64,000 bases of DNA, from positions 124,001-188,000 of the forward strand of contig NZ_VCQU01000008.1 in assembly GCF_012932915.1 (NCBI RefSeq), given 5' to 3'. Shown here piece after piece: positions 25,569-61,307 of this stretch. Source of the DNA: Antrihabitans stalactiti. GTDB taxonomy: Bacteria > Actinomycetota > Actinomycetes > Mycobacteriales > Mycobacteriaceae. Within the stretch, counting starts at the first letter, position 1. Each line of letters starts with the position of its first letter. The translations under genes were made by a program, and so were the position numbers. The notes under the pieces were generated by a model. The model made no database searches and was not told the origin of the DNA. It was given only the letters and a program-made list of their open reading frames with translations.

Positions 25569-25608
25569 GTGAGTCTTTTAGGAGTCCCTGGACTCCTAAA
25601 AGACTCAC
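25569..25608. repeat. Intergenic palindrome, GTGAGTC family, copy 1
   Basis: GTGAGTCTTTTAGGAGTC and its exact reverse complement are separated by CCTG. Flanking ACCAT/ATGGT extends the dyad beyond a short bulge (25561-25613). It lies between the O-methyltransferase stop and the TetR start, both on the minus strand. Identical core to the copies at 29464 and 61268. Confidence 0.9.
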
Positions 25609-25627
25609 ATGGTCTGAGCAGGACTTT

Positions 25628-26260
25628 TTAGCCGCGCGAGGCGCAGAGCAACCCGTCGCCGACGGGGATGATGACCTTGGTGAGGCGGTTGTCTTCGGCA
25701 ATGGCGCGCGCGGCGGTGCGGACCGCGAGGGTGGTGGCGTCGCGTTGCGTCGAGTCGGCGACCCGACCGCCGAGCAGTGCGTTGTGCAGCACGATCAGGC
25801 CGCCGGGTCGAAGAAGGCGAACTCCGTGCTCGACGTACTGGGGATGGTCGACGGGCGTCGTGTCGATGAAAACCATGTCGTAGGCGGCGTCGGCGAGGCG
25901 GGGGAGGACGTCCAGTGCGCGACCGTTGATGAGCCGAGTCCGTGGGGTCGGAATACCGCCTGCGCGGAAGGCGTCTTTCGCTGCGCGCTGATGCTCGGGT
26001 TCGGAGTCGATCGTGGTCAGGGTGCCGTCTTCGCGCATGCCGTCGAGCAGCCACAAGCCACTGATGCCTGCGCCGGTGCCGACCTCGACGACCGTCTTCG
26101 CGTCGAGCAATTGGGCGAACATGCTCAGGATTGCGCCGACCGATGGCGGAATCGGTGCAGCACCAAGGTCATCGGCTCGTTCGCGTGCAGCGACCAGTAC
26201 CTCGTCCTCCACAACAGATTCTTCGACGTAGGTAAGGGTTCGCTGCGCATTCGTCTCCAC
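25628..26260 (-). CDS. Class I SAM-dependent O-methyltransferase (Rv1220c-like)
   Basis: A 210-residue member of the catechol/caffeoyl-CoA O-methyltransferase family. SAM motif I is [16 protein letters not shown] (~residue 57), an acidic residue follows in [10 protein letters not shown], and the metal and catalytic region is [12 protein letters not shown] with [10 protein letters not shown]. The methyl acceptor is unknown. It stands divergent from sigE with 233 bases between starts, exactly as Rv1220c does next to sigE in M. tuberculosis, which supports orthology. Confidence 0.92.
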
Positions 26261-26405
26261 GATTCGAGGTTATCGCCGTAATAGCTTCGGGTCGTCTAGG
26301 CGCGACCGACAACATTTCTCAGGGTTCCCTCAGGCTCCTCATACGCCGGGCATATCGCGGTGCGACAGTGTGGTCTCCACGGAAGAAGAACCATCCGATC
26401 ACGGG

Positions 26406-26431
26406 GGAACAAAGCGCCCAACCGGCGAGTT
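26406..26431 (+). promoter_or_regulatory. ECF-type promoter candidate upstream of sigE
   Basis: GGAAC at 26406, 18 bases of spacer and GTT at 26429 match the GGAAC/GTT pattern recognised by SigE/SigH-type factors in mycobacteria. Position, 63 bases before the first canonical sigE start, fits autoregulation. Short motifs of this kind also occur by chance. Confidence 0.45.
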
Positions 26432-26464
26432 GAAGTTCTTAGAAGTTAGTACGTGGTCCTGCCT

Positions 26465-26470
26465 AGGAGG
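26465..26470 (+). promoter_or_regulatory. Orphan ribosome binding site upstream of sigE
   Basis: A perfect AGGAGG lies 23 bases before the first canonical in-frame start (GTG 26494) but only 8 before an in-frame ATC codon (26479). An in-frame stop (TAG 26464) overlaps it, so no further upstream start exists. The true sigE start is therefore uncertain. Confidence 0.55.
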
Positions 26471-26493
26471 TTTCAGCCATCCACACGGTCAAT

Positions 26494-27138
26494 GTGGCAC
26501 GCGACTATTCCACTCTTCGAGGTGAGCACGGCTCACCCGAGTCGTTGCTGTCCGGAGATCAAGAGGCCGAACTCACTGGAACCGCCGCTTTCGACGCCAC
26601 CGGTGAGGAAACGGCTATGCCGTCCTGGGACGAGCTGGTTCGCGAACATGCCGACCGGGTTTATCGGCTGGCCTACCGACTTTCCGGCGATGCGCAAGAT
26701 GCCGAGGATCTGACGCAGGACACGTTTATTCGAGTGTTCCGGTCGTTGTCGAATTATCAGCCAGGCACATTCGAGGGCTGGCTGCATCGCATCACCACGA
26801 ACTTGTTCCTCGATATGGTGCGGCGCCGTAACCGGATTCGCATGGAAGCGCTGCCCGACGATTACGACCGGGTTCCCGCAGAAGGTCCCGGACCCGAGCA
26901 GGCGTACTACGACGCGCGCCTGGATCCGGACCTGCAATCCGCTTTGGACTCACTTGCACCCGAATTTCGCGCCGCGGTTGTGCTCTGTGACATCGAAGGC
27001 CTGTCCTACGAAGAGATCGGTGCCACACTGGGAGTGAAGCTCGGTACTGTGCGCAGCCGGATCCATCGCGGACGGCAGGCATTGCGTGAGTACCTGGCCC
27101 ACCAGGCAGACAACAAGGTCGACAGCGCACTTCTGTGA
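26494..27138 (+). CDS. sigE: ECF RNA polymerase sigma factor SigE
   Basis: Directs transcription of envelope and oxidative stress genes. The 214-residue protein has a divergent N-terminal arm, then region 2 ([54 protein letters not shown]) and region 4 (LPPEF-like [39 protein letters not shown]), nearly identical to M. tuberculosis SigE. GTG 26494 is the first canonical start; ATG 26617 (MPSWDELVR) is an alternative that keeps all conserved regions. Followed by its anti-sigma gene, htrA and tatB on the same strand, the conserved envelope-stress cluster. Confidence 0.95.
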
Positions 27139-27182
27139 CACCGCTGCCCCGCGTCTGCTCGGAGACGACCAGGAGGGATTCG

Positions 27183-27509
27183 ATGGCGCACGACCCGGGA
27201 TCGGCACCGGCCCGACGCTTCGGGTCGACGGAGCATTTGGCGAGCGAGGCGATCGCCGCCTACGTCGACGGCGAACTCCGCATGAATGCATATCTGCGTG
27301 CCGCGCAGCATCTGGGCATGTGCCCCGAGTGCGCCGCAGAGGTCGAGGCGCAGCAGCAAGCTCGAAAGGCGCTGCGCGAGTCCGGTGAGATCGCGATTCC
27401 GAAATCCTTGATGGGCGCACTCGGTCGGATCCCGACCGGTGAGTTCCCGTTCTGTGGAAGCGACTTGCCCGACGAAAGTAGGCGCTGGACGCTCCGAAGG
27501 CGCAAATGA
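27183..27509 (+). CDS. rseA: Zinc-binding anti-sigma E factor RseA
   Basis: Cytoplasmic anti-sigma factor that holds SigE inactive. The 108-residue protein has the ZAS motif HxxxCxxC (His43, Cys47, Cys50 in QHLGMCPEC) within the block FGSTEHLASEAIAAYVDGEL that is shared with mycobacterial RseA. ATG 27183 is chosen for its strong ribosome site (AGGAGG, 27171); a GTG at 27135 overlapping the sigE stop is the alternative. In M. tuberculosis RseA is released by reduction of its cysteines and by phosphorylation-triggered proteolysis; whether that holds here is inference. Confidence 0.92.
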   Translation: MAHDPGSAPARRFGSTEHLASEAIAAYVDGELRMNAYLRAAQHLGMCPECAAEVEAQQQARKALRESGEIAIPKSLMGALGRIPTGEFPFCGSDLPDESRRWTLRRRK

Positions 27510-27564
27510 GTGGCCAGCGAACACGCGAGCGAAGCGCGCAATCCAACACAGTAGAGTTTCTGGC

Positions 27565-29061
27565 GTGACCTCGGAATCGACCAAGCCACAAGACGCGGAT
27601 GCTGGGAACCTTCGGCCATCCGATGCGCCGGTGCTCGGGCCGCGGCCGGTGTTCCGCCCCCACGTAGACCATTCCTTCACGCGTGCGTTCGGCCGCCCGA
27701 GCGGTGTGACGGGTTCGTTCACTCCGACGGCAAGCCGGGGTACGCCCTCGCCTGACCTACAGGTTCGTCCGCCCGACCCGATTCTCGCCGAGGCGTTCGG
27801 TCGCCAGGAGGGCGATACCGAGTCGCTGCAGCGCGACCCGAACGCGAGCACCGGACCGGACGAGACGCCTGAGCCACCGGATCCGTGGCGCGACCCGAAT
27901 GCCGGCGCCCAGCTCGGACCGCCCGCCCTGGAGAAGCCGGTCGAGCACGTCTCGCCGCCCGCACCCAAGCTCACCGCTCGCGAAGTGCTGTTCGGCTCCC
28001 GGGTGAAGCCGAAGGCGCTGGCGATTCTCGCCGCCGTCGCGCTGGTCATCGGCCTGTTGGGCGGTTTGCTCGGCCGATTGACCGCTGAGGTCGGTGGAGA
28101 TCTGACGAGCCGGAAAGTCGCACTGCAGCAGGTGGATGCGAGCGGCGACGAGCCGCATACTCAGGTCGCGAAGGTCGCCGAAGCAGTTCTGCCCGCGGTC
28201 GTGTCGATCCAGGTCACGCTCGGCGACAACGCCGCAGGCGGATCCGGTGTCGTCATCGATGGCGCCGGCTACATCGTGACCAACAACCACGTCATCTCGA
28301 TGGCTGCGACCGACAAGACCGGTGAAGCCAAGATTCAGGTGTTGTTCTCCGACGGCACCAAGGCGCCGGGGAAGATTGTCGGCCGCGACACCAAGACCGA
28401 CCTCGCCGTGCTGAAGGTCGACGTCGCGAACCTGAAGGTTGCGCAGCTCGGCAAATCGGCAGACGTCGAGGTCGGTGAAGAAGTCATCGCGATGGGCTCG
28501 CCGCTCGGCCTGAACAAGACGGTCACGTCCGGCATCGTCAGCGCGCTGCACCGCCCCGTGCGGCTCAGCGGCGAGGGCACCGACACGGATGCAGTCATCG
28601 ACGCCGTGCAGACCGATGCAGCGATCAACCCCGGTAACTCCGGCGGTCCGCTGCTGGACGACGAAGGTCGCGTCATCGGAATCAATTCGGCGATTCGCAG
28701 TCAGAGCGGTGGGTCCGTCGGTCTCGGCTTCGCGATCCCGATCGACACCGTCAGCAAGGTCGCACAGGCACTCATTCGCGACGGCGTCATGAAGCATCCC
28801 GATTTCGGGGTCAACGCCAGCACAGTCGTCAACGACATGACGAGCGGCGCCAAGGTCGAGAACGTGAAGGCCAACAGCCCAGCGCAGCGAGCCGGAATCG
28901 TCGAAGGCGACATCATCACCAAGGTCGGCGACCGCGAGGTCACCAATGCTGACGAACTCGTCGTCGCGTACCAGTCGCAACCCATCGATGCCACGGTCAA
29001 CGTGCAACTCGTACGCGAAGGGCGCTTCGTCGATGTTCCGATCACGTTGACGTCCGACTGA
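27565..29061 (+). CDS. htrA: Membrane-anchored HtrA-type serine protease
   Basis: Degrades or refolds damaged envelope proteins. The 498-residue protein has a long Pro/Gly-rich cytoplasmic N-terminus (~1-150), one membrane helix (~153-172), a trypsin-like domain with His242 (NNHVI), Asp279 (TDLAVLK) and Ser359 (NPGNSGGPL), and one C-terminal PDZ domain (~400-498). GTG 27565 is chosen because the open frame upstream runs into rseA and lacks family-like sequence. The stop overlaps the tatB start (TGATG). Member of the sigE-rseA-htrA-tatB cluster. Confidence 0.94.
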
Positions 29062-29453
29062 TGTTCAACATCGGCTGGTCGGAAATGGTGGTGCTACTGG
29101 TCGTGGCACTGGTCGTGCTCGGGCCGGAACGGCTCCCCGGTGCGGTGATGTGGGTGACGAAGACGATGCGCCAGGTCCGCGACTATGCCAGTGGCGCGAC
29201 CCAGCAGCTCAAGGACGAACTCGGTCCGGAGTTCGACGACCTTCGTCAGCCGTTGTCGGAGATCAATAAGCTACGCGGGATGACCCCTCGTTCGGTCATC
29301 ACCAAACACCTGCTCGATGGCGACGACTCGATCTTCACCGGCAATTTCGACCGGCCCTCGCTGGAGAAGCCCAAATCGGCCGAGATGCCCCCGACCAGCG
29401 GAAAACCGTTGAACCACAACGAGCGCCCGCCGATCGATCCTGACGCCACCTGA
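29061..29453 (+). CDS. tatB: Sec-independent (Tat) translocase subunit TatB
   Basis: Part of the twin-arginine receptor complex with TatC. The 130-residue protein has the typical [20 protein letters not shown] membrane helix, the GPERLP hinge, an amphipathic helix (~25-60) and a polar tail. Start overlaps the htrA stop by one base, so translation is coupled. The tail is followed after ten bases by a long palindrome shared with the convergent mrp gene. The same htrA-tatB order is seen in M. tuberculosis (Rv1223-Rv1224). Confidence 0.95.
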
Positions 29454-29463
29454 ACAACCCCTC

Positions 29464-29503
29464 GTGAGTCTTTTAGGAGTCCCTGGACTCCTAAAAGACT
29501 CAC
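29464..29503. repeat. Intergenic palindrome, GTGAGTC family, copy 2
   Basis: Core identical to the copies at 25569 and 61268. Flanking CTC/GAG extends the perfect dyad to 29461-29506. It fills the gap between the convergent stops of tatB (29453) and mrp (29511), the expected place for a bidirectional terminator, but has no T-run after the stem. Confidence 0.9.
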
Positions 29504-29510
29504 GAGCAGG

Positions 29511-30647
29511 TCAGAGGTGGCGGGTGGTGTCGATGCTGAGCGACATGCCGGCCAGGCCGCGTTGCCGGACCGACAACTTGTCGGCCACAGCGATCAAGGC
29601 TTTGCCAGCGGCTGATTCGGGGTCTCGAAGCACGATCGGAACGCCCTCGTCGCCTGCGACGCGAACGGCTTGCTCCAGCGGGATCTGACCGAGCAGCGGG
29701 ACCTTCGCGCCCACGGCCTTGGTGAGGCGATCTGCCACCACTTGGCCGCCGCCGCTGCCGAACACGTCCATGCGAGAGCCGTCGGGCATTTCCATCCACG
29801 ACATGTTCTCGACGACGCCGACGACGCGCTGGCGGGTCTGTAGCGCGATGGCGCCTGCCCGCTCCGCAACCTCGGCGGCGGCGGGCTGCGGCGTCGTCAC
29901 GACGAGGATCTCCGCACTCGGAATGAGCTGAGCGATCGAGATAGCGATATCGCCGGTGCCGGGCGGTAGATCGAGAAGCAGGATGTCGAGATCGCCCCAG
30001 AACACGTCCGCAAGGAACTGCTGCAGCGCGCGGTGCAACATCGGTCCGCGCCACACCACGGGAGTGTTGCCCTTGGTGAACTGCGCAATGGAGATCATCT
30101 TCACGTCGTGCGCGACCGGCGGCATGATCATGCGCTCGACCTGCGTCGGCCGCGCATCGGTGCCGAGCATCCGGGGGATCGAGTGACCGTAGATGTCTGC
30201 GTCCAGAACGCCGACAGACAATCCCTTCTTGGCCATGGCCGCCGCGAGATTGACTGTGATGCTGGATTTTCCGACGCCGCCCTTACCGGAGGCGACCGCG
30301 TAGACCCGAGTAAGTGAGCCTGGCTGCGCGAACGGAATCACCGGTTCAGCAGAGTCGCCACGCAGCGACCGGCGCAGCTCGGTGCGCTGTTCATCGCTCA
30401 TGACGTCGAGGTCGACGCGGATTCTGCCGACGCCGGGGACGTCGGCGACGGCTTTGCTCACCCGGTCGGTGATCTCGGTACGCATCGGGCACGCGGACGT
30501 CGTGAGGTAAACGACGATGTCGACACTCGAGTCGGAGCCGATATCGACGCTCTTCACCATCCCGAGCTCGGTGATCGGTTTACGGATCTCGGGGTCGTCC
30601 ACCCTGGCGAGGGCAGCACGAACGGCATCTTCGGTGACGACTGGCAT
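29511..30647 (-). CDS. mrp: Mrp/ApbC-family iron-sulfur cluster carrier ATPase
   Basis: A 378-residue MinD-like P-loop ATPase thought to carry Fe-S clusters to target proteins. The N-terminal DUF59/MIP18 domain (~1-95) contains the TSACPMR cysteine. The ATPase domain has the deviant Walker A GKGGVGKSS (~residue 120), DADIYGHSIPR and a Walker B-like ILLLDLPPGTGD. The C-terminal CxxC pair of many Mrp proteins is absent: the region reads ENMSWMEMPDG, as in mycobacterial Mrp. Cluster carriage by the usual cysteines is therefore uncertain. Corresponds to Rv1229c. Confidence 0.92.
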   Translation of the reverse strand: MPVVTEDAVRAALARVDDPEIRKPITELGMVKSVDIGSDSSVDIVVYLTTSACPMRTEITDRVSKAVADVPGVGRIRVDLDVMSDEQRTELRRSLRGDSAEPVIPFAQPGSLTRVYAVASGKGGVGKSSITVNLAAAMAKKGLSVGVLDADIYGHSIPRMLGTDARPTQVERMIMPPVAHDVKMISIAQFTKGNTPVVWRGPMLHRALQQFLADVFWGDLDILLLDLPPGTGDIAISIAQLIPSAEILVVTTPQPAAAEVAERAGAIALQTRQRVVGVVENMSWMEMPDGSRMDVFGSGGGQVVADRLTKAVGAKVPLLGQIPLEQAVRVAGDEGVPIVLRDPESAAGKALIAVADKLSVRQRGLAGMSLSIDTTRHL

Positions 30648-30682
30648 TACTCGATCCTACTGAGCGGCCCTGGACGGACCCA

Positions 30683-31519
30683 TCAGTGGATCTGCGGAAG
30701 GGCCGCAGCGGCAGGCACGATACCGGTTGCGTAGCCGACGGACCAGGCCATCACGTTCGCCACGTAAGCCATCGAATTGTTGTAGCGCAGAATCGCTTTG
30801 GTCTGCTGAGCGATGTCGCGCATGTTCAATCCGCCGTCGCACAGGTAGCGACCGGTCGTCAACGCGGCGTCGAACAGGTTCTGCGGATCGGCGACGCCGT
30901 CGCCGTTGCCGTCGACCCCGTACTTCTTCCAGGTTTCGGGCAGGAACTGCATGGGCCCGACCGCGCGGTCGTAGGTGGCGTTGCCGTCGAGCGCACCGTT
31001 GTCGGTGTCGTGGATGACGTTGTTGCCGTAGAGGCTGCCGTCGAGGATCGGTCCGTAGATCGGGCTCAGCAGATTGCCGTGTTCGTCGGCCTTACCGTCG
31101 TTGGCGTGCGTGGACTCGACGCGGCCAATGCCTGCGATGAGGGTCCACGACATCCCGCAAGCCGGATTCTGTGCCGCGAGGGTGGCCTCAGCGGCCTTGT
31201 AGGCGGCGACGTTGATGTTCGGGACACCGAGCGGTGACGCCTTGACGCTGGTCGGCAGCGACGGCTCGGCCGGCGGTGGCGGGGCAGGCGTGGCGACCGG
31301 CTCGTTCACCACCTTGGCGGCTGTCGTGGCGGGCGTGACTCGGTCGAATGCGGCCGAATGGCCGAGCGCGACGGGCGATACGACGTCACCGGCAATCTGC
31401 GCCGCAGGCGCCTGCGTGACGAGAGCTTCGGTGACGAGTCCAGCTGGAACGAGCCCGGTCAAGGCGATCAAAGAATTTCGCCGAATGGTCGAACTCGACT
31501 TCTTGCTGTGGCGACCCAC
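30683..31519 (-). CDS. Secreted lytic transglycosylase (Rv1230c-like), paralogue 1
   Basis: Cleaves peptidoglycan glycan strands. The 278-residue protein has an N-terminal secretion or anchor segment (IALTGLVPAGLVTEALV), a Pro-rich spacer (~70-95) and an SLT domain of the MltB-like type with catalytic Glu in IGRVESTH, then GNNVIHDTDNGALDG, DRAVGPMQFLPETW and the LRYNNSMAYVANV end motif. An EF-hand-like loop DGNGDGVADPQN sits in the domain. GTG 31519 has a ribosome site (GGAGG, 9-base spacing). Its 5' region can fold into two hairpins. A paralogue lies directly upstream. Confidence 0.9.
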   Translation of the reverse strand: MGRHSKKSSSTIRRNSLIALTGLVPAGLVTEALVTQAPAAQIAGDVVSPVALGHSAAFDRVTPATTAAKVVNEPVATPAPPPPAEPSLPTSVKASPLGVPNINVAAYKAAEATLAAQNPACGMSWTLIAGIGRVESTHANDGKADEHGNLLSPIYGPILDGSLYGNNVIHDTDNGALDGNATYDRAVGPMQFLPETWKKYGVDGNGDGVADPQNLFDAALTTGRYLCDGGLNMRDIAQQTKAILRYNNSMAYVANVMAWSVGYATGIVPAAAALPQIH

Positions 31520-31537
31520 TAGCTGATACCTCCGTTG

Positions 31538-31572
31538 GCCTCTATCGAGGCGCTCCGATTTCAGGTCGGAGC
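31538..31572 (-). other. Structured leader of lytic transglycosylase 1
   Basis: Two adjacent hairpins precede the ribosome site: GCCTC/GAGGC (31538-31551) and GCTCCGA/TCGGAGC (31552-31572). They could control access to the GGAGG at 31529. No known riboswitch consensus is recognised, although c-di-AMP riboswitches precede other wall hydrolase genes in this group. Confidence 0.45.
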
Positions 31573-31588
31573 CGAGGGTACCCTATTT

Positions 31589-31627
31589 GAGATTTTTTCG
31601 TTATCTCGCCGTGACATTGCTCACGGC
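31589..31627 (-). other. Two hairpins downstream of lytic transglycosylase 2
   Basis: GAGAT/ATCTC (31589-31607) and GCCGTG/CACGGC (31608-31627) lie 19 bases after the stop of the upstream paralogue. They may form its 3' end, but no T-run follows the stem on the minus strand. Confidence 0.4.
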
Positions 31628-31646
31628 TGTGGCCAACTGCCGAAAC

Positions 31647-32993: not shown

Positions 32994-33056
32994 TCGACAC
33001 ACCACCAGCGGAATCGTGTCAGCGGTCGATAACCGCTCTGGACAACGTTGTCCAGA

Positions 33057-34956: not shown

Positions 34957-34970
34957 ACGCCCCAGGCTAG

Positions 34971-35038
34971 GCCGTGTCTCTCATTCTTCGAGACCCGGCC
35001 TGAGTGTTGGATGGTCGCTCCGCAAGCTCCGCGAGCGA
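34971..35038. repeat. Solo copy of the 69-bp repeat
   Basis: Contains CTCTCATTCTTCGAG and GGTCGCTCCGCAAGCTCCGC in the same order as the units of the array at 41943. The 3' part forms TCGCTC/GAGCGA. It lies between the divergent MgtE-like gene and the gene at 35095. Confidence 0.85.
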
Positions 35039-36159: not shown

Positions 36160-36189
36160 CTGTGCGCACTCCTGTCCGATTAATCCCGG

Positions 36190-37850: not shown

Positions 37851-37896
37851 ACTGTGCGTGAGTTTGGCCCCTCCAGGGGCCAAACTCACGCACAGT
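37851..37896. repeat. Perfect 22-bp-arm palindrome, GTGCG family
   Basis: Two exact 22-base arms (outer ACTGTGCGTGAG, inner GGCCCCT) are separated by two bases. It begins two bases after the MFS stop. Related to the element at 22282, and its GTGAGT word also starts the GTGAGTC family. Probably ends the MFS transcript before the gene at 37919. Confidence 0.92.
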
Positions 37897-37918: not shown

Positions 37919-39025
37919 GTGACCGCTGTACTCACCCAACGCGCGTTGAACCGCGCGACCTTGGCGAGGCAGCACCTGCTGGCTCGCAGCGCGACCTCGA
38001 CGATCGATTTCGTCACCCACGCCTACGGCTTGCAGGCACAATCGCCCACTGCGCCGTACTTCGCCGCGTGGGCAAGGCTCGAAAGATTTGAACCGCAACA
38101 ACTTTCGGACCTGATCCTCGACCGCCGCGCGGTCCGGATCGTGGTCATGCGCGGGACCGTTCACCTGCTCGCCGCCGACGATGCCCGCGTCCTGCGGCCG
38201 TTGGTGCAGCCGATCATGGTCCGCGATCTCGCTCAGAACGCACTGTACGCGGCGGGGTTACGGGATATCGATTTCGACGAATTGGCCTCGGTCGGTAGGG
38301 AATTGGTCGAGCAGTCGCCGATGACGCTGGCCGACCTGCGGCCGATCTTCGCGCAGCGCTGGCCGGACCGCGACCCGGCCGCGTTGGCCCATGGGCTGCG
38401 CAATCTCCTTGCGCTGGTGCAGGTCCCGCCGCGTGGGGTGTGGGGGCGAAGTGGTCAGCCGACACTGACGACGTTGGAGAACTGGGCAGGTAAGCCGCCC
38501 ATCCTCGAGCCGTCGCCCGACGACATGCTGCTGCGCTACTTGGCCGCATACGGACCTGCGACTGTCCTGGACGTCCAAGCCTGGTCCGGGCTGACTCGTC
38601 TCGGCGAGGTGATGGAACGGTTGCGTCCGCAGCTGGTGACCTTCCGGTCGGAGTCGGGTGCCGAGCTGTTCGATCTGCTGGACGCCCCACGGCCCGACGC
38701 GGGCGTGACGGCACCGGTCCGGATTCTTGCGCCTTTCGACAACGTCTTGCTGTCCTACGCCGACCGGACCCGAATCATGGACGAGGAATACAAGAAGTCC
38801 GTGTTCACGATCAACGGCATCATCAAGCCCGCGGTCCTCGTCAACGGACGAGTCGCCGGCTATTGCGCGCTGTCGAACGCCAAAAAGGCGGCCAAGCTGG
38901 ACGTATCGATGTTCACTCAGCCCGCCAAGACCCACCTCGCCGCCATCGAGCGCGAAGGCCGGCGGTTGCTGGAATTTGCCCATCCCACGGTCGAAAATCG
39001 GGACGTCCACATCCACCCCTTGTGA
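37919..39025 (+). CDS. Winged-helix protein of the AlkZ/YcaQ-like (HTH_42) family
   Basis: A 368-residue protein of the superfamily that includes AlkZ and YcaQ, DNA glycosylases that unhook interstrand crosslinks or bulky alkylated bases. Repeated winged-helix units form the fold. The motif LQAQSP (~residue 36) matches the QxQ catalytic motif of AlkZ-type members, and MRGTVHLLAADD and PFDNVLLSYADRTRI are further family landmarks. GTG 37919 is chosen because the preceding codons fall in the palindrome. In producers AlkZ confers self-resistance; here it follows a drug pump, so genotoxin defence is plausible, but many relatives are uncharacterised. Confidence 0.82.
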   Translation: MTAVLTQRALNRATLARQHLLARSATSTIDFVTHAYGLQAQSPTAPYFAAWARLERFEPQQLSDLILDRRAVRIVVMRGTVHLLAADDARVLRPLVQPIMVRDLAQNALYAAGLRDIDFDELASVGRELVEQSPMTLADLRPIFAQRWPDRDPAALAHGLRNLLALVQVPPRGVWGRSGQPTLTTLENWAGKPPILEPSPDDMLLRYLAAYGPATVLDVQAWSGLTRLGEVMERLRPQLVTFRSESGAELFDLLDAPRPDAGVTAPVRILAPFDNVLLSYADRTRIMDEEYKKSVFTINGIIKPAVLVNGRVAGYCALSNAKKAAKLDVSMFTQPAKTHLAAIEREGRRLLEFAHPTVENRDVHIHPL

Positions 39026-39061
39026 GTCTTTTCGGAGTCCATAGACTCCAAAAAGACTCAC
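39022..39061. repeat. Intergenic palindrome, GTGAGTC family, variant copy 3
   Basis: GTGAGTCTTTTCGGAGTC and a right arm ending AAAAAGACTCAC, loop CATA. One position is C/A on the plus strand but a G/U wobble in minus-strand RNA. The TGA stop of the preceding gene lies inside the left arm. Confidence 0.85.
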
Positions 39062-41663: not shown

Positions 41664-41944
41664 CGGATTCGTTGTCAGGCAGGCTGATTCGCGGCCTCAG
41701 CGGTGCGATCACTGCGGGGGTCATCGTCCTGACTCTCGTCGTCGTGGGTGCGCACTTTCTCGGCGACCGATGGGACTTTCCCGGCCCCGGATCGACGTCG
41801 ATCACCTGGCATGTCGCGACGTCGGTCGTTGTGTTTGTGGCTCAGGTCGTCGCCGATCGCCGAAGGGGAGGAGCCTCCCTGGTCGCATCGCTCGCGGTGT
41901 TCGTGGTGACTGCGGCACTCCTGTGGACCCAATGGTGGGACTAG
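41660..41944 (+). CDS. Small three-helix membrane protein
   Basis: A 94-residue protein beginning MTDSLSGRLIRGLSGAITAG with three hydrophobic segments (~13-33, ~47-65, ~72-90). ATG 41660 overlaps the PHP stop by four bases, so the gene is probably real and cotranslated. I do not recognise a family. Its last codon enters the 69-bp tandem array, whose first unit starts at the stop codon. Confidence 0.78.
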   Translation: MTDSLSGRLIRGLSGAITAGVIVLTLVVVGAHFLGDRWDFPGPGSTSITWHVATSVVVFVAQVVADRRRGGASLVASLAVFVVTAALLWTQWWD

Positions 41945-42283
41945 CCGTCCCTCTCATTCTTCGAGGCCTGGCTAGTCATATTGAATGGTCGCTCCGCAAG
42001 CTCCGCGACGAGCCGTGCCTCTCATTCTTCGAGGCCCGCCGTAGTCGTGTTGAATGGTCGCTCCGCAAGCTCTGCGACGAGCCGTGCCTCTCATTCTTCG
42101 AGGCCCGCCGTAGTCGTGTTGGATCGCTCCGCAAGCTCCGCGACGAGCCGTGCCTCTCATTCTTCGAGGCCCGCCGTAGTCGTGTTGAATGGTCGCTCCG
42201 CAAGCTCCGCGACGAGCCGTGCCTTTCATTCTTCGAGGCCCGCCGTAGTCGTGTTGAATGGTCGCTCCGCAAGCTCCGCGACT
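41943..42283. repeat. Five-copy tandem array of a 69-bp repeat
   Basis: Units start at 41943, 42011, 42080, 42146 and 42215 (68, 69, 66, 69 and ~69 bases). Each holds CTCTCATTCTTCGAGGCC (one T variant in the last unit), TAGTCGTGTTGAATGG and CGCTCCGCAAGCTCCGC; GTCGC/GCGAC forms a hairpin in most units. Unit 1 is the most diverged and unit 3 lacks three bases. The unit is a multiple of three, so both strands give repetitive open frames that are not credible genes. A solo copy lies at 34971. Confidence 0.95.
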
Positions 42284-42586
42284 GAGCCACCCTCACCGCG
42301 GACAAGATCCGAGATTGAGATCGTTCTTACGTCCGGGTAATCAACATGACTTACGGTTGCCGATGATGGAGGTCGCGGCGTCACCGTCGCCGACCGCGAC
42401 TCCATTTGCACCGACCCTCGTTGCGAACCTTTCGGCCGCGGTGGCAAACTTGGCACCACCTCAGCGCCGGCGCCACCGCCCCGAGCGCAGGTACATACGG
42501 TTTCTCGGACGCACCCGTCCCAGTCCACGATTCTCAATGAACGCGCATCGACGGTTCGAATTTGCCTAGCCGCAATATAGTTAACC
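42284..42586. other. Intergenic region without a supported gene
   Basis: About 300 bases between the repeat array and the malic enzyme leader. Short open frames exist on both strands (for example from 42363) but have no ribosome site, no recognisable domain and biased composition. TATAGT at 42576 is a possible -10 element for the malic enzyme gene. Nothing else is seen. Confidence 0.6.
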
Positions 42587-52239: not shown

Positions 52240-52258
52240 GCAAACGAGCGTAGAGTTC

Positions 52259-52298
52259 TACTGACTGTTAGTCAATAGCTATTGAGTGGTGCTCAGTA
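52259..52298. promoter_or_regulatory. Nested palindromic operator between the monooxygenase and TetR genes
   Basis: TGACTGTTAGTCA (52262-52274) and TCAATAGCTATTGA (52272-52285) are both perfect dyads sharing three bases. An outer pair TACTGA (52259) and TCAGTA (52293) encloses them. This is strong operator structure for the adjacent TetR protein, able to control both divergent genes. Confidence 0.75.
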
Positions 52299-52319
52299 CG
52301 GGCGTGGAGGTGATGATCG

Positions 52320-53678: not shown

Positions 53679-56600
53679 TCAGCGAACGCTGCGTCGATGA
53701 TCGCCTGTTGCTCGACCGCGTGCACCTTGCTCGACCCCGACGACGGTGCCGACATCGCACGCCGCGAGATGCGCTTGATACCCGTCAGCTTCTCGGGAAG
53801 GTATTCCGGCAAGTACAGCCCGAACGTCGGCCACGCACCCTGGTTCGCGGGCTCCTCCTGCAGCCAGAAGTACTCCTTGGCGTTGGGGTAGCCGTCGAGT
53901 GCTTCGTTGAGCCGGAAGCGCGGGATCGGGTACAGCTGCTCGATCCGGACGATCGCAACGTCCTCGCGGTTGTCCTTCTGCTTGCGCGCCAACAGTTCCC
54001 AGTAGAGCTTGCCGCTCGTCAGCAGGATCCGCTTCACCTTGCTGCGGTCGCCGTCGCCACTCTCGTAGGTGGGCTCGTCGAACACAGAGTGGAACTTGCC
54101 GTCGGTGAAGTCCTTCAGGTTGCTGACCACATTCTTGTTGCGCAGCATCGACTTCGGTGTGAAGACGACCAGCGGACGGCGAATTCCGTCGTGCGCGTGC
54201 CGACGCAGAAGGTGGAAGTAGTTCGCGGGAGTCGACGGCATCGCGACCGTCATCGAACCCTCCGCACACAGCTGCAACCAACGCTCGATGCGACCGGACG
54301 TGTGGTCCGGACCCTGCCCTTCGTGACCGTGCGGAAGCAGGATCACCACTTCGGAGAGCTGGCCCCACTTTGCTTCACCGGACGAAATGAACTCGTCGAT
54401 GATGGGTTGTGCGCCGTTGACGAAGTCGCCGAACTGCGCTTCCCACAACACAAGTGCCTCGGGGTTACCGAGTGAGTAGCCGTATTCGAACCCCACGACC
54501 GCGAACTCGCTCAAAGCCGAGTCGTGAATCGCGAATCGGCCGGGCTTCTCGCTACCGATGTTGTGCAGCGGCGTGTACTCCGCGGCTGTCTTGCGGTCGA
54601 TGATCACCGCATGGCGTTGGGTGAACGTGCCGCGCCGAACATCCTGACCCGTGAGCCGGACGCTCTTTCCTTCGTCGATCAAGGTGCCGAAGGCGAGCAG
54701 TTCAGCGAACGACCAGTCGACATTGCCCTCGTACGCCATTTCGCGTCGACGCTCGAGAACCGGCTTGACGCGCGGGTGCACCGTGAAGCCCTCGGGCACG
54801 TTCAGGTAGGCATCGCCGATGCGTTGCAGCAGCGCCTTGTCCACGGCGGTCACGAGCTTCTTCGGAAGGGGCTGATCCATCTCGACCGACTTCGTCGGCT
54901 CGGGTGTGTACTTCTCCAGCTCCCGGACCTCGTTGAACACTCGCTCCAACTGACCCTGGTAGTCGCGCAGGGCGTCCTCGGCCTCTTTGAGCGAGATGTC
55001 GCCACGACCGATGAGGGATTCGGTGTAGCTCTTGCGAACCGAACGCTTCGTGTCGATCGTGTCGTACATGTAGGGCTGCGTCATCGACGGGTCGTCGCCC
55101 TCGTTGTGACCGCGGCGGCGGTAGCAGATCATGTCGATGACGACGTCCTTGTGGAACTGCTGCCGGTAATCGACAGCCAGCTGCGCAACCCAGACGCACG
55201 CCTCGGGATCGTCGCCGTTCACGTGGAAGATCGGCGCCGCAACCATCTTTGCGACATCGGTGCAGTACTCGCTGCTGCGCGAGTTCTCCGGTGCCGTGGT
55301 GAAGCCGATCTGGTTGTTCACGACGATGTGGATCGTGCCGCCGGTCCGGAATCCGCGCAGCCCTGCGAGGTTCAGCGTCTCGGGAACCACGCCCTGGCCC
55401 GCGAAGGCCGCGTCGCCGTGCAGCATCAACGGCACGACGGAGAAGCCGCCGGGACCGTCGCCCTTGTCGAGCAGATCCTGCTTCGCACGGACCAGACCTT
55501 CGAGCACCGGGTCGACAGCTTCGAGGTGGCTCGGGTTGGCAGTCAGCGACACCTCGATGTCGTTGTCGCCGAACATCTGGATGTAGGTGCCGCTCGCACC
55601 GAGGTGGTACTTCACGTCGCCGGACCCGTGGGCAGCCGACGGGTTCATGTTGCCTTCGAACTCGGTGAAGATCTTCGAGTACGGCTTGCCGACGATGTTG
55701 GCAAGCACGTTCAAACGACCGCGGTGCGGCATGCCGATGATGACCTCGTCGAGGCTGTGCTCGGCCGCCTGATCGATGACGGCATCCATCATCGGGATGA
55801 CCGTCTCGGCGCCCTCCAGCGAGAAGCGCTTCTGACCGACGTACTTCGTCTGCAGGAACGTCTCGAATGCCTCGGCGGCGTTCAGCTTGCTCAGGATGTA
55901 CTTCTGTTGCGCAACAGTCGGTTTGACGTGCTTCTTCTCGACTCGCTCCTGCAGCCACTTGAGCTGGTCGGGCTCGAGAATGTGCATGTACTCGACACCG
56001 ACGTGGCGACAGTAGGCGTCGCGCAAAATGCTGAGTACGTCGCGCAACCGCATGCGCTCTTCGCCGCGGAAGCCGCCGACGTTGAACTCGCGATCGAGGT
56101 CCCAGAGGGTGAGCCCGTGGGTGACGACGTCGAGGTCCGGGTGGCTGCGGAACTTGTCCTTGACCAACCGCAGCGGATCGGAGTCGGCCATCAAGTGACC
56201 GCGGTTGCGGTACGCCGCGATGAGTTCGAGCACACGGGTGGTCTTGTCGACACCGCGCTCACGCATGTCCTTGCGCCAACGGACCGGCTCGTACGGGATC
56301 CCCATCGCGTGGAAGATCTCATCGAACAGCTCGTCGCTGATCAGCAAGTTGTGGATTGTGCGGAGGAAATCGCCCGACTCTGCACCCTGAATGATGCGGT
56401 GGTCGTAGGTCGAGGTGAGCGTCATCAACTTGCCGACGCCGATATCGGCGATCCGCTCGTCACTGGCGCCCTGGAACTCGGCGGGGTACTCCATCGCACC
56501 GGCGCCGACGATCGTGCCCTGGCCCGGCATGAGCCGCGGTACCGAGTGAACGGTCCCGATCGTGCCCGGGTTGGTGAGGGAAATCGTCACGCCGGAGAAA

Positions 56601-57475
56601 TCCTCGGCGGTCAACTTGCCGTCACGCGCGCGCCGGACCACGTCTTCGTACGCTGCGTGGAACTGCGCGAAGTTCATTGCCTCGCAGCCCTTGATCGCCG
56701 CGACGACCAGGGTGCGGCTGCCATCCTTGCCGGGCAGGTCGATCGCGAGACCGAGGTTGGTGTGCGCCGGCGTGACCGCGTTGGGCTTGCCGTCGATCTC
56801 GGCGAAATGTCGGTTCATGGTCGGCAGCGCCTTGACGGCTTGGACGATCGCATAGCCGAGCAAGTGCGTGAAGGAGATCTTGCCGCCGCGCGTGCGCGCG
56901 AGGTGGTTGTTGATCACCAGTCGGTTGTCGATCATCAGCTTGGCCGGGATGGCGCGGACGCTGGTTGCTGTGGGGATGCTCAGCGACGCCGACATGTTCT
57001 TGACGATCGCCGCAGCGCCACCACGCAGGATCTTGTTCTCGTCGCCGGTTGCCGCACCGGGCTGTGTCGGTGCGGTGGGCTTCGCGGCGTTCGACGCAGG
57101 CGCAGGCGCACTCTTCGGTGCGGGCTTCTCGGGTGGAGCAGACTTCGGAGCTTCTTGCGGCGCAGCGGCTTTCGGCTTCGTGGCCGGTGCCGGGGCTGCA
57201 GCCTTCGGCTCGGCGGCTTTCGGCTCGGCGGCCTTCGGTGCCGGAGTCTTCGATTCCGCGGGCTTCGGTGCTGGGGCAGCAGCTTTCGCGGGCGGTGGCG
57301 GCGCGGCGGATTTTGCCTCGGCTTGCCCGTTGGCCGCGTCGGCGCCGTCGGGTGTGTAGTCGGTCAGAAACTCGTGCCAGCTTTCATCGACGGACGCGGG
57401 GTCTTCCTTGAACCGCTGGTACATCTCGTCGACGAGCCATTGATTCTGTCCGAACTGGGCAGTGGAGCTGCTCAC
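53675..57475 (-). CDS. kgd: Multifunctional 2-oxoglutarate decarboxylase/dehydrogenase E1-E2 fusion (Kgd)
   Basis: Thiamine-dependent 2-oxoglutarate metabolism at the TCA branch point. The 1266-residue protein has an N-terminal E1-type helix (~1-40), an Ala/Pro/Lys-rich linker (~45-145), an E2 succinyltransferase core (~150-390, ending [15 protein letters not shown]) and the E1 part (~400-1266) with the ThDP region [10 protein letters not shown]...[14 protein letters not shown] and a C-terminal [15 protein letters not shown]. This E2-E1 fusion is diagnostic of Mycobacteriales and relatives. It lacks a lipoyl domain, as in the family. In mycobacteria it is inhibited by unphosphorylated GarA and activated by acetyl-CoA. 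GTG 57475. Confidence 0.97.
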
Positions 57476-57519
57476 GGCAGGTAATCCTCTTTTCGTTCCT
57501 CATTACCGATCTGCACGTC

Positions 57520-57547
57520 TATATACGAGGCTAGACCTGTACCTGAA
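57520..57547 (-). promoter_or_regulatory. Candidate kgd promoter
   Basis: On the minus strand TTCAGG (57547-57542), 16 bases and TATATA (57525-57520) resemble a sigma-70 promoter, 45 bases before the kgd start. The -35 box is weak. Confidence 0.4.
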
Positions 57548-57581
57548 CGCGTGCGCAGAATCCCTGCACTTGGTTGACGTG

Positions 57582-60500
57582 TCAACTGCGCGCAGTCGAG
57601 CCGTTAACCAGGACTTGCCCGGAATCGAAGACCTCGCCGCCTTCTTGATGTGCTGCATCCCACAGCTTCGCGTACGGTCCGCCCGCCGTTCGGAGGGCTT
57701 CGTGGCTGCCGGACTCGACGATTGTGCCGTGGTCGACGACGACGATCAGGTCAGCCCGCGCGGCTGTAGCGAGCCGGTGCGCGACGATCACCGCAGTCCG
57801 TCGCCGGGTCACAGCCTTGCTCGCTGCAAGCACCACGGCTTCGGTTGCCGGATCGAGAGTCGCCGTTGCTTCGTCGAGCAACAACAGGTCCGGGTCGACC
57901 AATTCGGCGCGGGCGAGGGCGACCAGTTGGCGTTGCCCGGCAGACAGCCCTTGACCGCGTTCGCCGATCGGAGTTCGCATACCGGCCGGCAATGCCGCGA
58001 TCGTCGCCAACGCACCGACCGAGCGCGCCGCAACCTCGATCTCCTCGTCGGTTGCGTCGGGTTTGCCGAAAGCGATGTTGGTGGCGATATCACCGGTGAA
58101 CAGGTGCGCCTCTTGTGGCACCACACCGAGGCGGGCGCGGTACTCACCGAGTCGGTAGCGCCGAACATCGACGTCGTCCACCGCTACCGACCCGGCCGTC
58201 GGGTCGTAGAAGCGGGCGAGCAGTTTGACGATGGACGACTTGCCGGCACCCGTACGTCCGACTAGCGCGACTGTCGTTCCCGCCGGAATGTGCAGATCAA
58301 CATCTCGCAACGCGGCGGCGTCCTGCTCGCGGTAGCGGAACGTCACGTCGTGCATCGTGACCTCACCACGCAGGTGTCCTTCGATGGGCATGATCTCGTT
58401 CGGCTGGGCATCCTCGAGCGAGGTGGGCGTTCGCAGCAACTCGCCGATCCGCCGAAGGCCCACCGCTGCCTGCTGGTAGCCGTCGAACACTTGCGAAAGC
58501 TGTTGGATCGGCACGAACAGCAGGCCGAGGTAGAGGACGAAGGCAACGAGTGTGCCGGGCGTCGTTGTCCCCTCGGCCACGTGCCGGGCGCCGACGTAGA
58601 CCACTGCAGCCAGCGCGAGATCCGAAAGCAGCGCGATGAACGGAAAGTAGATCGAGATCGCTTGCTGAGATCGCATCCGACTGCGCCGGTAGCTCTCTGC
58701 ACGTTCGGCAAACCGCTGCGCCGCGAAATCTTCGCGGCGATACGCCTGAGACGCGCGCAGGCCCGCGATGTTCTCCTGGAAGTCGGCGTTGACGATCGAG
58801 ATTCGTTCCCGAGACGTCGTGTACGCCGCCGACGAGAGCCGGCGGAACACCACAGTGGCAACGAGCAGCGGCGGGATCACCATCACCGCGACAAGTCCGA
58901 GCGATAGGTCGGTGACCAGCAGGGCGACGGACACGCCGCCGAGAACTGCCACGCTCAGCACAGCGGTCGACAGTCCGGTCTGGAGAAAGGTCGACAACGC
59001 ATCGACGTCGGTGGTCATGCGGGTCATGATTCGGCCGGACAGTTCGCGTTCGTAGTAATCGAGACCGAGCCGCTGCAGATGCGCATAGCTGCGGACGCGG
59101 AGTCCGAACAACACACGCTCGCCGGCGCGCGCGGAGATCAACGTTGTAGCCGCAACGACGAACCAGTCGATGAGCACGAGGACCGCACCGAGTGCGCTCG
59201 CCTCCCACAACGCCGACGCCTGACCGAGCGAAACACCGTGGTCGATGGCGTAGCGCACGATGGACGGAAAGGCGATGACGATCGCCGAATCGATTGCCAG
59301 ACACGCGACGACGGCGGCCAACAGCCAGCGCACCGGCCTGAGCATCTTCGACAACGCGAACTCGGGATCGGGCTGACGGAGTGCGGCGGTATCCAAGCCC
59401 GGTTGCTCGGTTGCAGGTGGTAGCGCGGCGATGGCCGCGAGCATGGCCGGCGTAGGCGGCATCGAGCCGACCGCCGCTGAGACCGGTCCGCTGAAACCAG
59501 GGGGAGCGGTCGTCTCTTTCGTGGCCGGGAGATCGATCTGCTGCTCAGGCCAGAGTTCTGGGTTGGCTGCTACGCCGGCCGCTCCCAACTCCACCACGCG
59601 ATCGGCGAAGGCCAGCGTCGAATTTCGGTGGGCGAGAATGATCGTCGTTCTAAAGCTGTCGGCCGGCAGTGCGGCAAAGATCGCGGCCTCGGTCGTCGCG
59701 TCGACCGCAGAGGTCGCGTCGTCGAGGATCAGTACCCGCGGCTCGACGAGCAGTGCGCGGGCCAGTGCGATGCGTTGGCGTTGGCCGCCGGAGAGCGTCA
59801 ACCCTCGCTCACCGATGACCGTGTCGTAGCCGTCGGCAAGCTCGGAAATGAAGTCGTCGGCCGCGGCGATCTTTGCGACCCTGCGGATTTCCTCCGTCGT
59901 CGCGTCGGGCTTGCCCAGCGCGATGTTCGCGGCGACGGTGTCGGAGAACAGGAACGGTTCGTCGAACACGATGCCTATCGCCGCGCGCAACTGGTCCGCT
60001 GCGACCTCGGCAATATCGACCTCGGAGCCGCCCGGTCCGGTCAATACGACTGCGCCGCTGCGCGGGGCGTAGAAGCGCGGCAGCAGCAACGACAATGCCG
60101 TCTTCCCCGAACCCGCCGGACCGACGATCGCGACAGTTTCACCCGGCGCAACGGTGAGGTTCAGACCGCGCAGGACGTCGTGCTCAGGATCGAAACCGAA
60201 ACTGACGTTGCGAAAGTCCACACCGAGCGGACCATGCGGCACGTCGACAGGGGAGTGCGGGTCGGCGACCGTCGGCACGGTGTCGATCACCTCGAAGACC
60301 CTGTCGACCGCAGCGCGGGCAAGCTGGGCCAGCACGACGACCGACGACAAGACTCGCGTCGTACTCGTCATCGTGGCTGTATAGGCCGCGAACGCGAGAA
60401 ATGTGCCGACCGTGATGTTTCCGTGCAAGGCAAGGAAGCCGCCGAAGGCCACGACGGCCACGAGGCCGAACTCGGGGAGGACCGTCATCGTCGGCGCGAA

Positions 60501-61226
60501 CCGCGAATTGATGAATGCGGCGCGCATCCGCTCGGCGTAGAGCGTCCGGCCGAGTTGTTCGAGCCGGTCGGTCACGCGACGCTCCTGGCCGAACCCCTTT
60601 ACGACGCGCACCCCGGTGACTGTCTCTTCGACGTGCTGCGCAAGGTCCGCCGCGCGCTGCTGTGCCGACCACGTCGCCGCATGCACCGTCGGCCGGACTT
60701 TGTAAACGATCAGCGCGACTGCCGGAACGATCAGCAGCGCGACCACCGTGAGCAACGGACTGAGCACTGTCATGACCGCGACCGCAAGACCGAACTGCAG
60801 CAACGCACCCGCCGACAGCGGCACCATCGCGAGCAAACCCTGGACCAATTGCAGGTCCGAGATCGATCGAGACACAACCTGGCCGGTGCGAATTCGGTCC
60901 TGACCGTGGCCGTCCAGGCGCTGGAGCGACGACAACAGCGATAGCCGCAGATCGTGCTGGACGCCGAGCGACATTCGTCCGGCAAGCATCCGCCGCCCGT
61001 ACTGGCACGCGAACCGAACGACGGCCAACACGGCTAGCAAGGCCGCCACTGCGCCGATCTTTTCGACGGCACCTGCTCCCGCAGCATCGACGGCAGTCTT
61101 GGTGAGCAGCGGACCGACGATCTCGATCAACGCTCCGACTGCCGTGGCCGCCAACGCCCCGATCGTGACTCCGCGATGGGCCCAGCACTGGCCCCACAGC
61201 CTGCGTATCCACCCGTCGTCGCTCAT
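57582..61226 (-). CDS. Fused double ABC exporter (TMD-NBD-TMD-NBD)
   Basis: A 1214-residue full-length lipid/drug exporter made of two MsbA-type halves. Half 1 has six membrane helices (~20-310) and an NBD with VGPAGSGKTAL, LTLSGGQRQRIALARAL and ILDDATSAVD. Half 2 has helices (~640-930) and an NBD with VGRTGAGKSS, LSAGQRQLVALARAEL and LLDEATATLD. NBD1 has Asp in place of the catalytic Glu after Walker B, while NBD2 has Glu, so one ATP site is probably degenerate. ATG 61226 is chosen because the open frame beyond it enters the upstream palindrome. Substrate unknown. Confidence 0.93.
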   Translation of the reverse strand: MSDDGWIRRLWGQCWAHRGVTIGALAATAVGALIEIVGPLLTKTAVDAAGAGAVEKIGAVAALLAVLAVVRFACQYGRRMLAGRMSLGVQHDLRLSLLSSLQRLDGHGQDRIRTGQVVSRSISDLQLVQGLLAMVPLSAGALLQFGLAVAVMTVLSPLLTVVALLIVPAVALIVYKVRPTVHAATWSAQQRAADLAQHVEETVTGVRVVKGFGQERRVTDRLEQLGRTLYAERMRAAFINSRFAPTMTVLPEFGLVAVVAFGGFLALHGNITVGTFLAFAAYTATMTSTTRVLSSVVVLAQLARAAVDRVFEVIDTVPTVADPHSPVDVPHGPLGVDFRNVSFGFDPEHDVLRGLNLTVAPGETVAIVGPAGSGKTALSLLLPRFYAPRSGAVVLTGPGGSEVDIAEVAADQLRAAIGIVFDEPFLFSDTVAANIALGKPDATTEEIRRVAKIAAADDFISELADGYDTVIGERGLTLSGGQRQRIALARALLVEPRVLILDDATSAVDATTEAAIFAALPADSFRTTIILAHRNSTLAFADRVVELGAAGVAANPELWPEQQIDLPATKETTAPPGFSGPVSAAVGSMPPTPAMLAAIAALPPATEQPGLDTAALRQPDPEFALSKMLRPVRWLLAAVVACLAIDSAIVIAFPSIVRYAIDHGVSLGQASALWEASALGAVLVLIDWFVVAATTLISARAGERVLFGLRVRSYAHLQRLGLDYYERELSGRIMTRMTTDVDALSTFLQTGLSTAVLSVAVLGGVSVALLVTDLSLGLVAVMVIPPLLVATVVFRRLSSAAYTTSRERISIVNADFQENIAGLRASQAYRREDFAAQRFAERAESYRRSRMRSQQAISIYFPFIALLSDLALAAVVYVGARHVAEGTTTPGTLVAFVLYLGLLFVPIQQLSQVFDGYQQAAVGLRRIGELLRTPTSLEDAQPNEIMPIEGHLRGEVTMHDVTFRYREQDAAALRDVDLHIPAGTTVALVGRTGAGKSSIVKLLARFYDPTAGSVAVDDVDVRRYRLGEYRARLGVVPQEAHLFTGDIATNIAFGKPDATDEEIEVAARSVGALATIAALPAGMRTPIGERGQGLSAGQRQLVALARAELVDPDLLLLDEATATLDPATEAVVLAASKAVTRRRTAVIVAHRLATAARADLIVVVDHGTIVESGSHEALRTAGGPYAKLWDAAHQEGGEVFDSGQVLVNGSTARS

Positions 61227-61267
61227 CGTTTTCCACCGTAGACCGACGCTCCGACACCCCCACCCTC

Positions 61268-61307
61268 GTGAGTCTTTTAGGAGTCCCTGGACTCCTAAAA
61301 GACTCAC
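61268..61307. repeat. Intergenic palindrome, GTGAGTC family, copy 4
   Basis: Core identical to the copies at 25569 and 29464. Lies between the stop of the ABC-2 permease (61319) and the start of the exporter, both on the minus strand, in the place of a terminator for the permease operon. Its right arm creates a spurious N-terminal extension for the exporter frame. Confidence 0.9.

What the first reader, a model, noticed from the sequence alone, without database searches (positions are those of the whole stretch)
25569..61307. Four-copy family of 40-bp palindromes with arm GTGAGTCTTTTAGGAGTC
Copies at 25569, 29464 and 61268 are identical over the 40 bases, and one at 39022 is a variant. All lie in intergenic gaps, close to stop codons, with arms maintained as reverse complements. 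Identity at sites up to 36 kb apart implies recent spread or strong selection. No transposase and no T-run are present, so they may be mobile palindromes that double as terminators or RNA-stabilising ends.
Basis: seen in the sequence. Interest (0 to 1): 0.72.

Follow-up and report, generated by a model that had tools for sequence, protein, structure and literature searches.

The report
Forty-base palindromes marking gene ends
This bacterium carries roughly two hundred near-identical 40-base DNA palindromes, in those sampled mostly right behind gene stop codons; they look like tiny mobile repeats that serve as two-way end-of-gene hairpins, and what copies them is unknown.

Summary
The window holds four copies of family 1 and two of a second 40-bp family (22282, 37854). 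The genome has about 190-215 family-1 copies. Same-genus Antrihabitans stalagmiti has ~138; three Saccharopolyspora and a Pseudonocardiaceae MAG have 31-120; yet only 12 of 397 sampled genomes of the order match. Another same-genus species (G003) has its own 40-bp family. Sampled copies sit right behind stop codons (78 of 83 distances at most 39 nt; 13 use the palindrome's own TGA). In 204 kb (mostly chosen for holding copies) all 10 convergent gaps of 40 bp or more contain a palindrome; the other 17 measure 13 bp or less. There is no T-run, and TTTT/AAAA has the reverse polarity of an intrinsic terminator. Arms are nearly frozen except one position, which varies yet tends to stay paired. Orthologous gaps in relatives are mostly empty; three hold an element, one of a different family. 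Best reading: non-autonomous REP-like mobile palindromes serving as bidirectional 3'-end hairpins. They fail tests for GTAG/CGTC REPs, and no REP transposase (PF01797) was found in this genus. The mobilising enzyme and any effect on transcripts are unproven. New variant of a known kind.

The parts
25569..25608 (.). Family-1 40-bp palindrome, copy 1, between two minus-strand genes, 19 nt after the stop of the O-methyltransferase gene
29464..29503 (.). Family-1 copy 2 in the convergent tatB/mrp gap (10 nt from the tatB stop, 7 nt from the mrp stop); perfect stem extends to 29461-29506
   Evidence: no palindrome in the corresponding gap of G003
39022..39061 (.). Family-1 variant copy 3; its TGA (39023-39025) is the stop codon of the upstream AlkZ-like gene
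61268..61307 (.). Family-1 copy 4, 11 nt after the stop of the minus-strand gene 61319-62080
22282..22321 (.). Second-family 40-bp palindrome (GTGCGCGAGTCTCACCCC type, 16 of 18 pairs) in the convergent gap 22278-22329
37854..37893 (.). Second-family 40-bp palindrome (GTGCGTGAGTTTGGCCCC type), 5 nt after the stop of the MFS gene; perfect stem 37851-37896
61259..61267 (.). Example of the C-rich outer tail (CCCACCCTC); the mirror sequence GAGGGTGGG lies on the other side of many copies. Conserved statistically, not covarying
25628..26260 (-). O-methyltransferase gene whose 3' end faces copy 1
   Evidence: PF01596
29061..29453 (+). tatB-like gene ending at copy 2
   Evidence: PF02416
29511..30647 (-). 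mrp-like P-loop NTPase gene ending at copy 2; used to find orthologous gaps
37919..39025 (+). AlkZ-like gene that ends inside copy 3
   Evidence: PF06224

Best explanation
These are non-autonomous, REP-like interspersed palindromes. A 40-bp unit (18-bp stem, 4-nt loop, GTGAG/CTCAC ends in family 1) has been multiplied within each species by an unidentified sequence-specific activity acting in trans. Insertions persist mostly directly behind stop codons, above all between convergent genes, where each copy becomes a strand-symmetric hairpin at the 3' end of one or both transcripts and may supply the stop codon itself. Shown: copy number, position, sequence constraint, patchy distribution, mostly empty orthologous gaps. 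Inferred: mobility, the trans-acting enzyme, and a 3'-end role (a barrier to 3'-5' exonucleases after Rho-dependent release, or partial bidirectional termination).
For: Copies: 217 arms on each strand at up to 3 mismatches against 2 and 0 for the control; 188 strict 40-bp units, control 0. Species-specific and patchy: G000 203 (control 4), A. stalagmiti 138 (0), Saccharopolyspora 109, 31 and 120 (0), MAG 69 (2); G003 has 30 copies of its own 40-bp family; 12 of 397 genomes of the order match, G000 included. Position: of 61 sampled copies 28 convergent, 27 tandem, 2 divergent, 3 inside a called CDS, 1 at a locus edge; 78 of 83 stop-to-core distances at most 39 nt. In 204 kb all 10 convergent gaps of 40 bp or more hold a palindrome (9 family 1, 1 family 2); the 17 others are 13 bp or less; in the window alone 2 of 2, and 6 others of 9 bp or less. 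Orthologous gaps or gene ends occupied: G001 2 of 11, G003 1 of 10, G002 0 of 7. Constraint: 1 of 550 letters deviates at arm positions 1-11 and 1 of 300 at 13-18 (25 copies), while position 12 uses four bases and pairs in 15 of 24 (7.5 expected). Neighbouring copies share haplotypes more than expected (9 of 44 pairs, mean 4.0 shuffled, p = 0.008).
Against: No transposase is tied to the repeat: PF01797 is absent from G000-G003, and no transposase family is matched by two or more of 109 flanking genes (families matched once are not all listed). No target duplication was established. The occupied orthologous sites (B and D) could mean vertical inheritance with homogenisation instead of fresh insertion. 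No match in viral contigs, phages or plasmids.
Confidence: 0.6

Rival explanations
1. A host-encoded sequence-specific factor (DNA-binding roadblock or RNA-binding 3'-end factor) recognises GTGAGTCTTTT..AAAAGACTCAC. The sites are selected termination elements, homogenised within each species, and are not parasitic repeats.
For: Near-frozen outer arms; unit length 40 bp in nearly all copies and families; tight stop-codon placement. At site D, G000, A. stalagmiti and G003 each carry their own species' version at the same place. In A. stalagmiti the inner stem varies without covariation beyond shuffles, so the sequence of the outer arms is what is kept.
Against: Absent from most sampled relatives and from most orthologous gaps read; more than one family within one genome.
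Confidence: 0.25
2. Ordinary intrinsic (Rho-independent) terminators that happen to share a sequence.
For: Very stable hairpins (-36.8 to -43.2 kcal/mol for the family-1 stretches folded) directly after stop codons on both strands. Hairpin 3' ends without a U-tract occur in Streptomyces clavuligerus (353 of 1427 mapped ends; PMC8269248, passages).
Against: About 1.25 T in the 8 nt after the stem (from the counts); TTTT in the 5' arm and AAAA in the 3' arm. The arm sequence itself is conserved, which an intrinsic terminator does not need. No preference for G-U over A-C in sense RNA of family 2 (7 against 12).
Confidence: 0.1
3. Tuning of translation: a hairpin within about 15 nt of a stop codon stalls ribosomes, as reported for E. 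coli REPs. Not exclusive of the best explanation.
For: 64 of 83 stop-to-core distances are 15 nt or less; REPs within 15 nt of a stop codon are said to stall ribosomes (PMC12306157, passages).
Against: Nothing here measures translation; the enrichment between convergent genes does not follow from it.
Confidence: 0.1
4. Chromosome-architecture or operator sites (binding sites spread over the chromosome) with no role at transcript ends.
For: Perfect dyads of fixed length; no clear bias of loop orientation to gene direction.
Against: Bias to 3' ends and few copies in divergent (promoter) gaps, 2 of 61; absence in close relatives.
Confidence: 0.05

Closest known systems
GTAG-tagged REPs / REPINs with RAYT transposases (Di Nocera 2013, PMC3733652)
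   Same: Short palindromes in high copy, patchy among species, several families per genome, located in convergent and tandem gaps close to ORF 3' ends, termini often supplying the stop codon (paper's abstract and section 15)
   Different: No unpaired GTAG tag, 18-bp stem against 5-13 bp, symmetric single units (closest pair in the G000 sample 1443 bp apart; one pair 30 bp apart in S. oryzae L146), no PF01797 transposase in G000-G003; the find for 'Actino' in that paper's text returned nothing
CGTC-tagged REPs (same paper)
   Same: Palindromic, 3'-end location, no dedicated transposase known, 4-5 nt loops
   Different: 8-9 bp stem with one tag and a CCA tail, mostly head-head dimers; here the unit is symmetric, 40 bp, with GTGAG or GTGCG ends
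TRIT motif of mycobacterial gene ends (Gardner 2011)
   Same: Conserved structured motif at gene ends of an actinobacterium (recalled from the abstract)
   Different: Its consensus could not be read (paper not held); genus g29, probably Mycobacterium (inferred from size and number), shows 0 matches to the 40-bp pattern
U-lacking hairpin 3' ends of Streptomyces clavuligerus (PMC8269248)
   Same: Stable hairpin at transcript 3' ends without a U-tract
   Different: Not described as a repeated sequence family in the passages seen

Membership tests
GTAG REP | Unpaired GTAG-type tag at one end | tested here: not met
   Core flanks are mostly (C/G)TC..GA(G/C) on both sides; TAGG next to an 11-nt hairpin occurs as an outer flank in A. 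stalagmiti
GTAG REP | Associated RAYT (PF01797) transposase | tested here: not met
   0 in G000-G003; 2 of 31 genomes match. Saccharopolyspora not tested
GTAG REP | Convergent/tandem placement next to ORF 3' ends | tested here: met
CGTC REP | CGTC-type tag, 8-9 bp stem | tested here: not met
   18-bp stem with symmetric ends; GTC precedes the core in 16 of 61 left flanks
Intrinsic terminator | U-tract after the stem | tested here: not met
Intrinsic terminator | Termination at the site | not testable with these tools
   needs 3'-end mapping
MITE | Target-site duplication | tested here: inconclusive
   Orthologous gaps are too diverged; none evident at tatB/mrp
MITE | Related autonomous transposon with the same ends | tested here: inconclusive
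   No lone arms in the window; whole genome not resolved
TRIT | Match to the TRIT covariance model | not testable with these tools
   Model not available; no Rfam family reaches its threshold in the window

The most novel reading that the evidence does not exclude
A superfamily of 40-bp palindromes (38-42 bp in a few copies) in Mycobacteriales (Antrihabitans, Saccharopolyspora and other Pseudonocardiaceae) that is not of the GTAG/CGTC REP kind. It is driven by an unknown trans-acting enzyme that recognises the outer arms, rewrites itself species by species, and can keep the same gene-end site occupied while its sequence is replaced (site D).
Probability: 0.3. Interest if true: 0.75.

Novelty: new variant of a known kind. 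Interest (0 to 1): 0.55.

Why it matters
REP-like repeats are best known from Proteobacteria with a RAYT transposase. Here is a well-defined actinobacterial counterpart with near-perfect symmetry, almost fixed length, no RAYT found in its genus and extreme closeness to stop codons, so the long-standing questions of how such palindromes spread and whether they end or protect transcripts become directly testable. If functional, it shows how convergent genes of a high-GC genome, which otherwise abut or overlap, get separated transcript ends.

Tried and rejected
Rfam: no family at threshold; permissive hits are microRNA, snoRNA and lncRNA models, taken as chance. RAYT transposase: absent in G000-G003. 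Viral, plasmid and phage collections: no match. Flanking genes sharing a family: TetR_N is the commonest, 5 of 109; of 121 flanking genes 12 were left out of that call, 8 of them window genes scanned and 4 never scanned. Outward flanks as a hidden longer stem: pairing no higher than shuffled beyond position 2, apart from noise. Loop orientation against gene direction: no clear bias (29 copies). G-U against A-C in sense RNA: no support for RNA pairing. Core covariation in A. stalagmiti: none of five measures above shuffles. I at first took all orthologous gaps to be empty; one search showed occupied ones at sites B and D, and I corrected the claim. One further possible shared place was not counted: in G000 and A. 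stalagmiti an element lies just upstream of homologues only 54% identical, with no match between the genes on the other side (L109/L128). Literature searches returned no paper in their listings that I recognised as describing this repeat; RNIE/TRIT and Czyz 2014 are not held. Papers seen: PMC3733652 abstract, sections 5, 6, 15 and part 1 of 17; PMC3610266 abstract and passages; PMC12306157, PMC8269248, PMC3526491 and PMC10653884 passages only.

Full report
Observation. The arm search with up to 3 mismatches finds exactly these eight arms against none in 100 shuffles. The family-1 stretches fold to -36.8 to -43.2 kcal/mol, 6 to 10 standard deviations below shuffles. Two more 40-bp palindromes of another family lie at 22282-22321 and 37854-37893.

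Genome and relatives. In the window's genome (G000, 6.76 Mb) 217 arms occur on each strand at up to 3 mismatches, control 2 and 0. The strict 40-bp pattern gives 188 units, control 0; a looser hexamer pattern 203, control 4. Three other genomes of the genus were listed. G001 has 138; G002 and G003 have 8 and 3 matches to a looser pattern, controls 2 and 1. G001 is Antrihabitans stalagmiti YC3-6 by equal contig lengths (374832; 697257; titles), so the window species is placed in that GTDB genus (inference). Across the order 12 of 397 genomes hold the 40-bp pattern, G000 included. G003 has 30 matches (up to 3 mismatches) to a different 40-bp family, GTGCGCGGTT...AACCGCGCAC, and A. stalagmiti 1; its inner part GAGTC-YATR-GACTC resembles family 1. 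Length is 40 bp in nearly all copies; 38, 39 and 42 bp occur.

Anatomy. Family 1 is GTGAGTCTTTTNGGAGTC, a 4-nt loop, and the reverse complement. In the 25 copies of 204 kb of contiguous sequence (stretches chosen because they hold elements, except the window), 1 of 550 letters at arm positions 1-11 and 1 of 300 at 13-18 deviate, while position 12 is A, T, C or G and pairs in 16 of 25. The shuffle test was run on 24 of them, one having been filed under another locus: 15 paired, 7.5 expected, 2 of 5000 shuffles as high. In the sample of 61 it pairs in 43 (20.8 expected); that sample came from places listed with an exact arm, so it leans to conserved copies. The outer tails (CCCACCCTC / GAGGGTGGG) are conserved on each side, but pairing between them is no higher than shuffled from position 3 outward. 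Family 2 (38 of 40 fetched loci give a clean 40-mer) covaries on three of five measures: 37 cells with both sides changed against 17.9 shuffled, cells paired and covariation score also above all 500 shuffles, slid controls at most 3 such cells; the number of pairs with a two-sided change and of pair types is not above shuffles. Relatedness of copies can inflate this. In A. stalagmiti the core shows no covariation above shuffles, but 36 of 52 flanks carry an 11-nt mini hairpin with compensatory variants (0.95 expected), found in 0 of 122 flanks of G000.

Position. With a simple codon-based gene caller of my own trained on the window, 61 sampled copies fall 28 convergent, 27 tandem, 2 divergent, 3 inside a called CDS, 1 at a locus edge; stop-to-core distance is at most 39 nt in 78 of 83, at most 15 nt in 64, and 13 are exactly -4, where the palindrome's TGA is the stop. 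All gaps in the contiguous loci number 27 convergent, 100 tandem, 26 divergent; Fisher p for the convergent excess is 1.3e-5 and for the divergent deficit 0.011. Of the 27 convergent gaps 9 hold family 1 (42-69 bp and one of 308), one of 52 bp holds family 2 (window 22278-22329), and the other 17 measure 13 bp or less. A. stalagmiti: one search counted 27 copies, one of them twice; the 26 distinct are 12 tandem, 10 convergent, 2 divergent, 2 edge, with stops at -4 (8 of 32) or 14-16 nt (16 of 32), where TAG or TGA abuts the mini hairpin. The MAG (6 of 7 convergent, 1 tandem) and Saccharopolyspora (7 tandem, 4 convergent of 11) agree, though 5 of 15 Saccharopolyspora distances exceed 50 nt. Family 2: 18 tandem, 16 convergent, 3 divergent, 3 in CDS of 40.

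Orthologous gaps. In the tatB-mrp gap G003, the closest relative by Mrp (92% identity), has the two stops 2 bp apart and no palindrome. Over 12 family-1 sites, A. stalagmiti holds an element at 2 of 11 places read, G003 at 1 of 10, G002 at 0 of 7. In only about 8 of these 28 comparisons do both flanks align close together; in the others 'same place' means beside one orthologous gene. At site D (G000 C3:14494) G000 and A. stalagmiti carry family-1-type palindromes of their own species' version, and G003 one of its own family, at the same place; G002 has another hairpin there. At site B G000 and A. stalagmiti both have one. So most copies seem to have come or gone since the species split, but some sites look old with replaced sequence; chance double insertion is not excluded.

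Mechanism. The position is that of a 3'-end element in both directions. An intrinsic terminator is unlikely: no U-tract (about 1.25 T in the next 8 nt, from the counts) and TTTT/AAAA in the wrong order. In S. clavuligerus 353 of 1427 mapped ends are strong hairpins without U-tract, read by its authors as possible I-shaped terminators or Rho-dependent ends (PMC8269248, passages); that is the model proposed here. Translation tuning, reported for E. coli REPs within 15 nt of a stop codon (PMC12306157, passages), is possible too. The near-invariant arms are not explained by an RNA hairpin alone, and in 18 tandem family-2 copies single-sided changes give 7 G-U, 12 A-C and 8 other mismatches in the sense RNA, so a DNA-level, sequence-specific activity (mobilising enzyme or binding protein) is the more economical cause of the constraint. 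Which enzyme is open: PF01797 is absent in all four genomes of the genus searched, and no transposase family is matched by two or more of 109 flanking genes.

Known kinds. GTAG and CGTC REPs (PMC3733652: abstract, sections 5, 6 and 15 and the first part of 17 read) share copy number, patchiness, gene-end placement and donated stop codons. The present family lacks the tags, a RAYT in this genus and the frequent dimers, and has a longer symmetric stem. It works like a REP but is not a member of the two described superfamilies. No paper in the listings was recognised as describing it; the library holds open-licence papers only.

Noticed in passing
22282-22321 and 37854-37893: Second 40-bp palindrome family (GTGCG..CGCAC, CCCC-loop-GGGG centre) in the same genome, also at gene ends, with arm covariation
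   Followed up: yes
L199 128-167 and L213, L215-L222: G003 carries its own 40-bp palindrome family (GTGCGCGGTT..AACCGCGCAC), 30 matches at up to 3 mismatches, the fetched ones near called stop codons
   Followed up: partly
A. stalagmiti loci L118-L151, flanks of the core: An 11-nt mini hairpin, often preceded by TAG or TGA, flanks the core and supplies stop codons; similar mini hairpins flank several G003 copies
   Followed up: partly
L111 about 11368: G000 has a GACTCACAACC stretch in a convergent junction where A. stalagmiti holds a full element, perhaps a decayed copy
   Followed up: no
G129 and G102: Related 40-bp palindromes of the type GTGAGTGTTTTGGGTCGTTCTAACGACCCAAAACACTCAC with two-sided variants in genus g62 of family f14
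   Followed up: no
window 41920-42327: Tandem direct repeat with 66-69 bp spacing (five overlapping copies of a 135-nt reference)
   Followed up: no
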